Assembly: GCA_963169235.1 (NCBI GenBank)
Contig: CAUJCX010000059.1
Span: 1-64,000 of the forward strand
DNA: 64,000 bases
Reading direction: 5' to 3'
Source of the DNA: Actinomycetota bacterium
Lineage (GTDB): Bacteria > Actinomycetota > Thermoleophilia > Miltoncostaeales > Miltoncostaeaceae
Shown here: piece by piece, positions 4,506 to 41,825 of the stretch
Numbering within the stretch: the first letter of the stretch is position 1
How the letters are laid out: each line of letters opens with the position of its first letter
Notes under the pieces: generated by a model
Database searches by the model: none
What the model was told of the DNA's origin: nothing
The model's input: only the letters and a program-made list of their open reading frames with translations
Position numbers and translations under genes: made by a program

Positions 4506-4582
4506 GCTGCACCACGTCCACCGGGCGGTGTGCCGTGGTAACCTCGGCGGACCGCCCACGGGCGCGGACAATCTTCATAGAC

Positions 4583-4667
4583 CCTGCTAGGGGGGCCTTA
4601 CAGGCTGAGATCCCATCCGGGACCACCCTAGAACCTGATCTCGTTAATGCGAGCGGAGGGAAGCGGG
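4583..4667 (+). promoter_or_regulatory. TPP riboswitch (THI element)
   Basis: The conserved THI-box pieces are present in order: GGGGGGCC, GGCTGAGA, ACCCTAGAACCTGATC, GTTAATGC, and GAGGGAAGC. The closing P1 helix can be drawn as CCTGCT (4583-4588) with AGCGGG (4662-4667). The 3' strand ends at the base before the ATG, and the Shine-Dalgarno GGAGGG (4655-4660) lies inside the aptamer. TPP binding should therefore hide the ribosome site directly, with no separate expression platform. It controls the four-gene unit 4668-7527. Confidence 0.93.
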
Positions 4668-4961
4668 ATGATCATGGAAATCCAGGTGCTGCCGACCCCC
4701 ATGGGCACGGCGCATCAGCCTTACGCCTACGTCGACGCGGCCATCGCGGCGATCGCCGGCAGCGGCCTCACGTACGAGGTGAACGCGCTCGGCACGGTGG
4801 TGGAGGGCGAGCCGGACGACGTCTGGGACCTGGCGCGGGCGGTGCACGACGCCACGCTGGCGGCCGGGGCGGAGTCGGTGGTGACCAACATCAAGCTGGC
4901 CGAGCGTCCCGGAGGGGACCTCCGCATGGGGGAGCTCGTGGCGCCCTACCGGGCGGGCTGA
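4668..4961 (+). CDS. Thiamine-binding protein, YkoF/MTH1187 family
   Basis: 97 residues. The ATG at 4668 is 7 nt after the Shine-Dalgarno in the riboswitch; an upstream in-frame ATG at 4647 lies inside the aptamer and is not a start. The sequence (IQVLPTPMGTAHQPYAYVDAA, then YEVNALGTVVEGE and SVVTNIKLAERPGG) matches the small ferredoxin-like MTH1187/YkoF proteins, which bind thiamine or its pyrimidine part in the cytosol. Co-transcription with an HMP-type ABC transporter under TPP control fits a role in buffering or sensing the imported precursor. Confidence 0.8.
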   Translation: MIMEIQVLPTPMGTAHQPYAYVDAAIAAIAGSGLTYEVNALGTVVEGEPDDVWDLARAVHDATLAAGAESVVTNIKLAERPGGDLRMGELVAPYRAG

Positions 4962-31786: not shown

Positions 31787-33475
31787 ATGACGACCTCCGC
31801 GGACGCCCCGGGCTCCGGAACAACGGGCTCCGATGCCCGCCCCGCGGGAGACCGTCTGGAGCCCGGCGTGGTGCTGGAGCACCTGGGCATCGCGGTGTTC
31901 GCCGTGGACGGCGCGTTGCAGCTGACTGCGATCAACCCCGAGATGCGCGCGCTGGTGGGGGCCGCCGCCGCCGCGCTGGCATCGCGCGAGGTGGCGCCGT
32001 TCACGTTCCTGTGGCCGGCCGACCGCATCCGGTGGACGGGGGCGCTGGCCAAGGCGGCCCAGGGCACGCCGTTGCGCATCACGGCCCGCGTGGCCGGTGC
32101 CACCGGCGACCCCATCACCGTCATCGCCGAGCTGCGGCCGGTTCCCGCCCCCGACGGCGACCCCGCGGGCGTGGTGGTGGGGCTGACCACGGGCCTCGAG
32201 TCGCCCCAGTCGGCCGGGGCCCAGCTGCTGGCCGGGGGCGCGTTGTCGGAGGACTCCCCCGACGCGATCCTGCGGTGGGACGCCGACAACCGCGTCGTCT
32301 ACATGAACCGGGCGGCCGAGCTCAACAGCGGGTTCACGCGCGAGGACATCCTGGGGGTCGACCTGCACGGCCTGCCGGCTCCCGAGGCGACGTACCAGGC
32401 CAGCGTGGAGCGGGCGCTGGCGACGGGCCTCGACCACGTCGACGAGTTCGAGTACCAGCCGATCACCGGCGAGACCATGTACGTGCGCACCCGCTACCTG
32501 CCCGAGACCGACGCCCACGGGCAGGTCTCCCACGTCATCACCATCACCCAGGACGTCACGCCGCAAAAGCAGGTGGAGCTCGAGCTGGCGCGGCTGGTAC
32601 TCATCAACACGCGCAGCGCCCAGCGCGAGGCGTCGTACCGCCGGGTGTCCGAGATCACGGCGTCCGGCGAGGGGCTGACCGCCGTGTGCGAGGCGGTGTG
32701 CCAGGAGGCCGTCAGCCTGCTGTCGGCGCTTCAGGCGTGGGTGACGGCGCACGAGCCGGACGGTCCGGGGCGCTTCGTCGGCGGTGCGCGCGACGGGGAC
32801 GCCGAGTCGGGAGGCACCCGCCACGATTGCGACATCGTCGTCGGCCCCGAGCTGTGGGGGGTGCTCAGCGTGGTGGTGCCGGGTGACCCGCCCGGCGACA
32901 TGGTGGACACCATGCGCACGCTGGCGCAGCTGGTGGCGACGGCATGCGTCAACGCGCGCATGATGGACGAGCTGGCCGAGATGGCCCGCACCGACTCCAT
33001 GACGGGGCTGGCCAACCGGCGCGCGTTCTTCGAGGCGCTCGACGGCGAGGTGGCCAAGGCCCGCCGCTACGGCGACGACCTGGCGGTGGCCATCGTCGAC
33101 CTCGATCACTTCAAGCGCGTCAACGACGAGTTCGGTCACGGCGTCGGCGACGACGTGCTGTGCGCGGCGAGCCGCAGGCTGGTCGAGGTGGTGCGTCGCG
33201 GAGAGCTGTTCGCCCGCATCGGCGGCGAGGAGTTCGCGTGGATCCTGCCGCGGGTCGACCTCGAGGACGCCATGGGGGTGCTGGAGCGCGCCCGTGCCGT
33301 GGTGTCGTCACCCCCCATCGAGCCCGTGGGCGTGATGACCATGTCGGCCGGCGTCGCCGTGCTGCGCGAGGGCGACTCGGTGAAGTCGCTCATCCGCCGC
33401 GCCGACGCAGCCCTGTACCGGGCGAAGTCCGGCGGGCGCGACCGGGTGGAGCCCCAGCAGGACGCCGACGGGTAG
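31787..33475 (+). CDS. PAS-GAF-GGDEF diguanylate cyclase
   Basis: 562 residues. A TACAGT -10 box 7 nt before the ATG indicates a leaderless mRNA. Two PAS modules (residues 15-140 and 145-265, the latter with ILRWDADNRVVYMNRAAELN), a GAF-like region (280-380) and a C-terminal GGDEF domain with DSMTGLANRRAFFEAL and RIGGEEFAW. The position of the inhibitory site reads RRGE instead of RxxD, so product inhibition may be weak. Soluble. It synthesises c-di-GMP in response to an unknown signal. Confidence 0.88.
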   Translation: MTTSADAPGSGTTGSDARPAGDRLEPGVVLEHLGIAVFAVDGALQLTAINPEMRALVGAAAAALASREVAPFTFLWPADRIRWTGALAKAAQGTPLRITARVAGATGDPITVIAELRPVPAPDGDPAGVVVGLTTGLESPQSAGAQLLAGGALSEDSPDAILRWDADNRVVYMNRAAELNSGFTREDILGVDLHGLPAPEATYQASVERALATGLDHVDEFEYQPITGETMYVRTRYLPETDAHGQVSHVITITQDVTPQKQVELELARLVLINTRSAQREASYRRVSEITASGEGLTAVCEAVCQEAVSLLSALQAWVTAHEPDGPGRFVGGARDGDAESGGTRHDCDIVVGPELWGVLSVVVPGDPPGDMVDTMRTLAQLVATACVNARMMDELAEMARTDSMTGLANRRAFFEALDGEVAKARRYGDDLAVAIVDLDHFKRVNDEFGHGVGDDVLCAASRRLVEVVRRGELFARIGGEEFAWILPRVDLEDAMGVLERARAVVSSPPIEPVGVMTMSAGVAVLREGDSVKSLIRRADAALYRAKSGGRDRVEPQQDADG

Positions 33476-33505: not shown

Positions 33506-33579
33506 CGGGACGTGGCGCAGCCTGGTAGCGCACCGGCTTTGGGTGCCGGGGGTCGCCGGTTCGAATCCGGCCGTCCCGA
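33506..33579 (+). tRNA. tRNA-Pro (anticodon TGG)
   Basis: 74 nt. Acceptor CGGGACG pairs with CGTCCCG; D-arm GCGCAGCCTGGTAGCGC; anticodon loop TTTGGGT gives TGG; T-arm GCCGGTTCGAATCCGGC; discriminator A. CCA is not encoded. It is followed by an unusual hairpin-rich region. Confidence 0.95.
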
Positions 33580-33628
33580 TCGTTCGCGCGGGGGGGCGGG
33601 GAAGGCTGCGACGTGCCCGGAAAGGGAA

Positions 33629-33805
33629 CGGGCGGCGTCGGGGTGCCCTCCCGACGCCGCCCCGCGGCCGCGACCGGGTGCCCTCCGGTCTGCGGCCGTT
33701 CAAGGCGCCGGGGGAATGTCCCGAACCCCGCGCCTCATGCTCTTGGTTATCGACGGCGGAGCCCCGGGCACACCCGCCTCTAGACGAATTGCCCAGGTGG
33801 GCTCC
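33629..33805 (+). ncRNA. Hairpin-rich region between tRNA-Pro and mscL, with two hairpins sharing one loop
   Basis: A 347-base gap with no protein gene. First hairpin: GGGCGGCGTCGGG (33630-33642) with CCCGACGCCGCCC (33650-33662), a 13-bp perfect stem. Second: GCGACCGG (33669-33677 region) with CCGGTCTGC (33685-33693). Both carry the same 11-base loop region GGGTGCCCTCC (33641-33651 and 33676-33686). A third long-range pairing is GGAGCCC (33758-33764) with GGGCTCC (33799-33805). The first hairpin could terminate tRNA-Pro; the repeated loop suggests a structured RNA. mscL has its own later promoter (TACGTT near 33868). Confidence 0.4.
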
Positions 33806-33926: not shown

Positions 33927-34292
33927 ATGGTGAAAGACTTCCGTGACTTCATCACCCGCGGCAACCTGGTCGATCTGGCGGTCGCCGTCCTCATCGCGAC
34001 GGCGCTGGCCGACCTGGTCAAGTCGCTCACGAACAACATCATCAGCCCGCTGATCGCCATGTTCGGCGGCAAGCCCGACTTCGGCTCGCTGACGTTCGAG
34101 ATCAACAACGCCGTCTTCAAGTACGGCCAGTTCCTGACCGACGTGATCGCGTTCATCATCTTCGCCGCCGTCATCTACTTCTTCATCGTGCGGCCGTTCA
34201 GCCGCTTCATGGAGCGGTGGAGCCCGGACGCCGGCGAGTCCGCCGAGGACATCCTCAAGGACATCCGCGCGGAGCTCCAGAAGAAGGACTGA
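33927..34292 (+). CDS. mscL: Large-conductance mechanosensitive channel
   Basis: 121 residues. It forms a pentameric membrane valve that opens on osmotic down-shock. FRDFITRGNLVDLAVAVLIATALADLVKSL is the first helix and pore motif; the second helix is VIAFIIFAAVIYFFIVRPF; and the C-terminal helix (EDILKDIRAELQ) is present. The usual GxIGxAF-type pore is varied (IATALADLV). Good GGGGGAAC Shine-Dalgarno. Confidence 0.93.
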   Translation: MVKDFRDFITRGNLVDLAVAVLIATALADLVKSLTNNIISPLIAMFGGKPDFGSLTFEINNAVFKYGQFLTDVIAFIIFAAVIYFFIVRPFSRFMERWSPDAGESAEDILKDIRAELQKKD

Positions 34293-41623: not shown

Positions 41624-41679
41624 TGTACGCCCTCCCGGGACGGACGTCGCTTGTGCGGGGTCGGGTGGATGAGATAGAC

Positions 41680-41825
41680 ATGCGTCGTCCGGCCCTGCCG
41701 GATGCTGTGAGGAGAGTCAGCGAAGCCGGTGTGATCCCGGCGCTGTCCCGCAACTGTGATGTCCCCGCCCTCCGGCGACGGACGAGCCAGGTCGCCTGCC
41801 TCCTTGCGACGTCGTAGTCCTCGGG
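41680..41825 (+). promoter_or_regulatory. Cobalamin riboswitch aptamer
   Basis: Conserved elements of the B12 aptamer in order: the AGCGAAGCCGGTGTGATCCCGG stem, CGCTGTCCCGCAACTGTGA (the B12-box core region) and GCCAGGTCGCCTGCC. It lies about 90 nt before btuF. With the hairpin at 41878-41907 it forms a translational switch for the seven-gene operon. Confidence 0.92.

What the first reader, a model, noticed from the sequence alone, without database searches (positions are those of the whole stretch)
33629..33805. Tandem hairpins with identical loops behind tRNA-Pro
Two strong hairpins, stem sequences unrelated, share the same loop region GGGTGCCCTCC 35 bp apart. Unrelated stems with a conserved loop are the mark of a loop read by a protein or RNA. 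A third long-range pairing follows. None of this is needed for tRNA maturation or for mscL, which has its own promoter.
Basis: seen in the sequence. Interest (0 to 1): 0.55.

Follow-up and report, generated by a model that had tools for sequence, protein, structure and literature searches.

The report
Small RNA with repeated hairpin loops
Behind a tRNA gene, on the opposite strand from the one first read, lies what looks like a gene for a small regulatory RNA whose hairpins have changeable stems but the same loop, and related RNAs sit next to different genes in several relatives.

Summary
Two strong hairpins share the 7-nt loop GTGCCCT 35 bases apart, and theirs is the only same-loop pair among 545 neighbouring hairpin pairs in 464 kb of this genome. 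The setting was misread. The element is unrelated to tRNA-Pro: 1 of 35 tRNA-Pro flanks has it. It runs on the MINUS strand: promoter-like box TGGGCAN5TCTAG, 26 nt, CGATAA, then three hairpins and a T-rich tail (33795 to about 33619). On that strand the loop is AGGGCAC.

I found 17 further copies, in 13 of the 42 held genomes of one Thermoleophilia family counting this one (8 of 12 genera; 7 copies rest on weak scores or inspection). Flanking genes differ. In the seven best copies the stems covary (11 of 15 pairs changed on both sides, 0 of 500 shuffles), while GGGCAC and its closing G-C stay fixed. All seven carry the box at nearly the same spacing, three of them found without using it. Rfam has no match.

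Best reading: an undescribed family of trans-acting small RNAs that present one active loop two or three times, like mycobacterial 6C RNA. The partner, mRNA or protein, is unknown. CsrA is unlikely.

The parts
33779..33795 (-). Promoter-like box TGGGCAATTCGTCTAGA (consensus TGGGCA N5 TCTAG), probably an activator site
   Evidence: Exact form once in G000 and once in G001, in none of the other 59 genomes; recurs same-strand upstream of genes in family genomes; 7 of 7 best RNA copies have it, null 2 of 4000 at 10 or more of 11
33745..33752 (-). -10-like element CGATAACC, 26 nt after the box
   Evidence: CGAT or CGAA at 26-27 nt in 7 of 7 best copies; function inferred
33618..33740 (-). Predicted small RNA, about 120 nt (ends inferred)
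   Evidence: Fold z -4.2, 0 of 200 shuffles; no transcript data
33702..33736 (-). Hairpin A; its inner loop holds UUCGGGACAUU rather than GGGCAC
33665..33698 (-). Hairpin B, loop AGGGCAC at 33678-33684
   Evidence: covariation
33630..33662 (-). Hairpin C, terminator-like, 13 pairs, loop AGGGCAC at 33643-33649
33619..33629 (-). T-rich tail GTTCCCTTTCC after hairpin C (weak U tract)
   Evidence: stronger in G001 (TTTCCTTTTTC)
33506..33579 (+). tRNA-Pro (TGG), neighbour, not part of the element
33927..34292 (+). mscL, neighbour, divergent from the RNA
   Evidence: PF01741, E 6.9e-32

Best explanation
A gene for a trans-acting small RNA of about 120 nt on the minus strand, one copy of a family found so far in one Thermoleophilia family. 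It is switched on through a shared promoter box (TGGGCA N5 TCTAG, 26 nt before a CGAT -10-like element) and ends at a GC-rich terminator-like hairpin. Its active part is the loop core GGGCAC on a G-C closing pair, shown two or three times per RNA on stems whose sequence does not matter. Most likely each loop is a redundant antisense seed (for GUGCCC) that pairs with mRNAs without a chaperone, as the C-rich loops of 6C RNA do. Shown by computation: strand signals, family, covariation, fixed loop, recurring box. Inferred: transcription, trans action, base-pairing. My shares: the RNA family about 0.88; given that, base-pairing about 0.5, protein capture about 0.35.
For: Same-loop tandem hairpins are unique in 464 kb (1 of 545 pairs). 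Covariance: 98.1% of cells paired, 11 of 15 pairs changed on both sides, 0 of 500 shuffles (MAFFT-only alignment of 4). New copies found by structure alone in G012, G019, G022 (E 6e-7 to 8e-6) turn out to have the promoter box at 9-10 of 11 positions with the same spacing; null 28 of 4000 at 9 or more, 2 of 4000 at 10 or more. Two copies found by promoter alone (G010, G025) turn out to have the loops. Neighbours differ: tRNA-Pro/mscL, gcvPB/GNAT, a Fur-like gene/uvrA, an amidase/DUF4389 gene, alpha/beta hydrolase (some gene names are my reading of the protein letters). The box stands same-strand upstream of protein genes such as a pilin. G011 has a pyrimidine-rich T run after a separate terminator hairpin on this strand. 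A 6C-type RNA with two redundant loops is known (PMC10470900, passages).
Against: No transcript data. G001's minimum-energy fold differs and its z is only -2.0. U tracts are weak or missing in several copies (G012 has none). The box is reversed relative to the RNA in G008, G011, G017 and absent in G025b, G022b, G019b; the last three have CGGGAC as second loop. GTGCCC is not enriched at gene starts: 17 of 369, mean of 60 permutations 13.6, rank 17 of 60, in 16% of the genome. Members of one genus are not independent.
Confidence: 0.55

Rival explanations
1. Same small RNA, but the loops catch a protein (Csr/Rsm-like titration): an RNA-binding protein, probably dimeric, reads N-GGGCAC hairpins and is soaked up by the RNA.
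For: Two or three identical loops per RNA and two copies in some genomes; the closing G-C is also fixed; ViennaRNA draws the loop as a bulged base plus a G(GGCA)C tip, a shape a protein could read.
Against: No other intergenic [AC]GGGCAC hairpin of 5 or more pairs in 464 kb (2 of 2 are the RNA itself). CsrA is not the protein: not found in G000 and G010, which carry the RNA, and GGA is not in the loop.
Confidence: 0.3
2. Plus-strand terminator hairpins of tRNA-Pro, or of the tRNA/mscL region, whose loop identity is chance.
For: They lie 50-120 nt behind the tRNA; stable GC-rich stems.
Against: 1 of 35 distinct tRNA-Pro 3' flanks has them; no T run on the plus strand behind them; same loop in copies with other neighbours.
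Confidence: 0.04
3. A DNA repeat or mobile palindromic element (REP-like), with no RNA function.
For: Different neighbours in different genomes; GC-rich palindromes.
Against: One or two copies per genome; stems differ completely between copies while loops agree, the reverse of a spreading repeat; box and spacing kept.
Confidence: 0.05

Closest known systems
6C RNA / B11 small RNA of actinobacteria (works like)
   Same: Two hairpins with like loops in one small RNA of an actinobacterium; for B11 either loop alone suffices and mRNA G tracts are the proposed partners (PMC10470900, passages).
   Different: The loop is GGGCAC, not C-rich; no Rfam match; different promoter context. On the untranscribed strand the loop reads GUGCCC, which only looks C-rich.
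CsrB/CsrC and RsmX/Y/Z (protein-titrating small RNAs)
   Same: Repeated identical loops, sometimes several RNA copies per genome.
   Different: No GGA in the fixed loop; CsrA not found in two RNA-bearing genomes.
Cuckoo / CcsR RNAs of alphaproteobacteria (recalled; one listing)
   Same: Repeated loops with one short motif, thought to act as antisense seeds.
   Different: Other motif, other phylum; the loop on the transcribed strand here is not anti-Shine-Dalgarno.

Membership tests
6C RNA | Two hairpins with runs of C (six or more) in the loops | tested here: not met
   Loops are AGGGCAC on the minus strand and GTGCCCT on the plus strand
6C RNA | Match to the Rfam model | tested here: not met
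   No match at gathering score in the window or in 5 relatives' loci; not among weak matches up to E 5
6C RNA | Loops pair with mRNAs | not testable with these tools
   Only a weak negative: no GTGCCC enrichment at starts
CsrB/Rsm small RNAs | GGA in the repeated loops | tested here: not met
   Loop [AC]GGGCAC; with a C-G second pair and C first (G010, G025a, G012 hairpin C) no GGA even across the stem edge
CsrB/Rsm small RNAs | CsrA/RsmA in the same genome | tested here: not met
   PF02599 in 24 of 41 genomes but not found in G000 (96% complete) or G010 (98%); a gap in a draft genome could hide it
tRNA-linked terminator | Kept behind the same tRNA in relatives | tested here: not met
   1 of 35 distinct flanks
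Independent small RNA gene | Covarying structure, promoter and terminator signals, changing neighbours | tested here: met
   terminator signal weak in several copies
Independent small RNA gene | A transcript | not testable with these tools
   No RNA-seq at hand

The most novel reading that the evidence does not exclude
A Csr/Rsm-like control system built on a different, unidentified RNA-binding protein: the GGGCAC loop is its recognition site, small RNAs of this family soak the protein up, and one transcription factor, bound at TGGGCA N5 TCTAG, drives the RNAs together with pilin and other genes.
Probability: 0.25. Interest if true: 0.8.

Novelty: new variant of a known kind. Interest (0 to 1): 0.6.

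Why it matters
It adds an RNA family without an Rfam match, in a class of bacteria for which my two-term paper search for small RNA work found only two plant-rhizosphere papers (listing only), together with a promoter box that ties the RNAs to protein genes. One fixed loop on freely changing stems gives a short, clean probe for finding the partner, and two or three copies per RNA make a redundancy test easy.

Tried and rejected
tRNA- or mscL-linked element: rejected.

Genome-wide family of GGTGCCCTCC hairpins: rejected; 52 hits but only two with long stems.

CsrA titration: rejected as a membership claim (loop letters).

Known Rfam family: none at gathering score; weak chance matches only.

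Presence outside the family: of 12 non-family hits at E up to 0.05 in 357 non-family genomes, 10 were inspected; none had two such hairpins, one (G345) had a single 4-pair one; 2 (G232, G190) were not looked at. Weak family hits G033, G001b, G001c, G029, G028, G164, G015, G010b and G006c were left out; G025c, G032 and G021 were also seen and left out; other weak hits were not inspected.

Targets: no enrichment of GTGCCC at starts, no leader copies of the hairpin (gene calls by a simple GC3 method of mine).

Double-loop pattern in 399 class genomes: 27 genomes; stems of 5 or more at two of the loops only in G000 and G001. The third G001 hairpin counts as 3 contiguous pairs before a mismatch.

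Full report
Observation. The two hairpins are real. In 464 kb of this genome, one of 545 neighbouring pairs of 7-nt-loop hairpins shares its loop, and it is this pair. The decamer GGTGCCCTCC is frequent in the genome (52 against 7 for the reversed control), but the other places look like coding sequence with stems of 1 to 5 pairs.

Not a tRNA feature. In 35 distinct 3' flanks of tRNA-Pro-like genes from this genome and relatives, only the window's has the loop hairpins. The congener G001 (its contig matches JAGQUM010000003.1, 'Thermoleophilia bacterium isolate HKST-UBA59') keeps tRNA-Pro followed by mscL without hairpins. It has three hairpins with the same loop at another place, between gcvPB and a GNAT gene (the gcvPB name is my reading of the protein sequence).

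Strand. Both copies share TGGGCARTTCSTCTAGA at one end and a T-rich stretch at the other. Read on the window's minus strand the order is box, 26 nt, CGATA, hairpins, terminator-like hairpin, T-rich tail. The exact box GGGCANTTCNTCTAGA occurs once in each of these two genomes and in none of the other 59 searched. The looser form TGGGCA N5 TCTAG, spaced to CGAT as in the window, gave 14 places in 12 of 42 family genomes with up to one mismatch, 7 of them exact, against 3 for the reversed control. Same-strand genes behind the box or its near forms include a type IV pilin (PF07963), homologous two-gene operons in G006, G011, G015 and G000 (G008 and G017 look the same), alpha/beta hydrolases and putative secreted proteins (homology judged by eye). 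In the pilin promoter the best CGAT lies 10 nt further, one helical turn. So the box is a promoter element with a direction, and in the window it points along the minus strand. Resemblance of CGATAA to the -10 of FliA/WhiG-type sigma factors is recalled and untested.

A family of RNAs. Two places found by the promoter search, G010 and G025, lead into twin hairpins with loop CGGGCAC. A covariance model of hairpins B and C from four sequences then found G012, G019 and G022 (E 6e-7 to 8e-6), a second copy in G025 (2.7e-4) and one in G022 (0.0056) among 42 family genomes. The first three were found without any use of the box, yet carry it at 9, 10 and 10 of 11 positions with the same spacing (27 nt in G012). 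In 4000 random stretches, 2 reach 10 or more and 28 reach 9 or more. These three are of one genus, so they are not independent in descent. A third model (12 sequences), searched in 41 family genomes, added G019b (2.1e-5) and G011b (7.5e-5) and, more weakly, G014, G005 and G006b (0.005-0.02), which on inspection have such hairpins, some with 8-nt loops AGGGGCAC or AAGGGCAC. G008, G011 and G017 (E 0.004-0.026 with the second model) have two CGGGCAC hairpins and a separate hairpin followed by a pyrimidine-rich tail, divergent from an alpha/beta hydrolase with the box reversed in between. One more candidate, G006 beside a hydrolase, was read by eye. In all: 18 loci in 13 of 42 held family genomes and 8 of 12 genera. 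Of these, 7 are the best-supported set, 4 more are strong by a model they were not part of (G025b, G022b, G019b, G011b), and 7 rest on weaker scores or inspection. Outside the family nothing convincing was seen among 357 genomes of the class (10 of 12 hits inspected).

Structure. On the 7-sequence alignment 98.1% of cells pair, 11 of 15 pairs change on both sides, 0 of 500 shuffles reach any of the five measures, and slid controls reach 37-53% paired. This alignment was fitted to the model; the 4-sequence alignment, made by MAFFT alone, gives the same picture (96.7%, 11 of 15, 0 of 500). On 20 single hairpins, 90% of cells pair with covariation score 0.72 against 0.17 shuffled, though two of the five measures are no better than shuffles there. 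These hairpins were picked by the letters G[AC]GGGCACC (20 of the 23 listed were aligned), so that set cannot show that the loop is fixed. The fixed loop rests on the model-found copies, which the models themselves favour, and three of those (G019b, G022b, G025b) have CGGGAC in the second loop. Folds: G000 z -4.2, G010 -3.0, G025 -5.0, G001 -2.0 with another minimum-energy fold.

Mechanism. Changing neighbours, own promoter signal, own terminator signal and a repeated fixed loop fit a trans-acting RNA whose loops are the working part. 6C/B11 is the nearest known behaviour: two like loops, each sufficient (PMC10470900, passages; [quoted passage not shown] Against simple base-pairing, GTGCCC is not enriched at gene starts in the sample; against protein titration, the hairpin has no other intergenic copy there. 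Neither test is strong. CsrA is an unlikely partner.

Novelty. No Rfam family matches. Searches of the paper library for GGGCAC with stem-loop and sRNA, for Thermoleophilia with small RNA, and for tandem hairpins with conserved loop in Actinobacteria gave nothing on such an RNA (listings only). I therefore call it a new family within a known kind.

Noticed in passing
G000:C26:46353 (L168), G000:C37:28569 (L158); L114, L112, L144, L147, L159, L172: The box TGGGCA N5 TCTAG recurs upstream of a pilin, homologous two-gene operons, alpha/beta hydrolases and putative secreted proteins across the family: an undescribed regulon.
   Followed up: partly
window 33779-33795 and loops at 33643-33649, 33678-33684: The promoter box and the RNA loop share the letters GGGCA; whether this is chance was not tested.
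   Followed up: no
G000 and relatives: CsrA (PF02599) is present in 24 of 41 of these genomes, including the congener, but was not found in G000 or G010.
   Followed up: no
window 4579-4678 (+) and 41676-41817 (+): TPP and cobalamin riboswitches.
   Followed up: no
window 31787-33475 (+): PAS-GGDEF protein (likely diguanylate cyclase) just upstream of tRNA-Pro.
   Followed up: no
G000, 52 places: GGTGCCCTCC is far commoner than its reversed control (52 against 7), apparently through codon use.
   Followed up: partly
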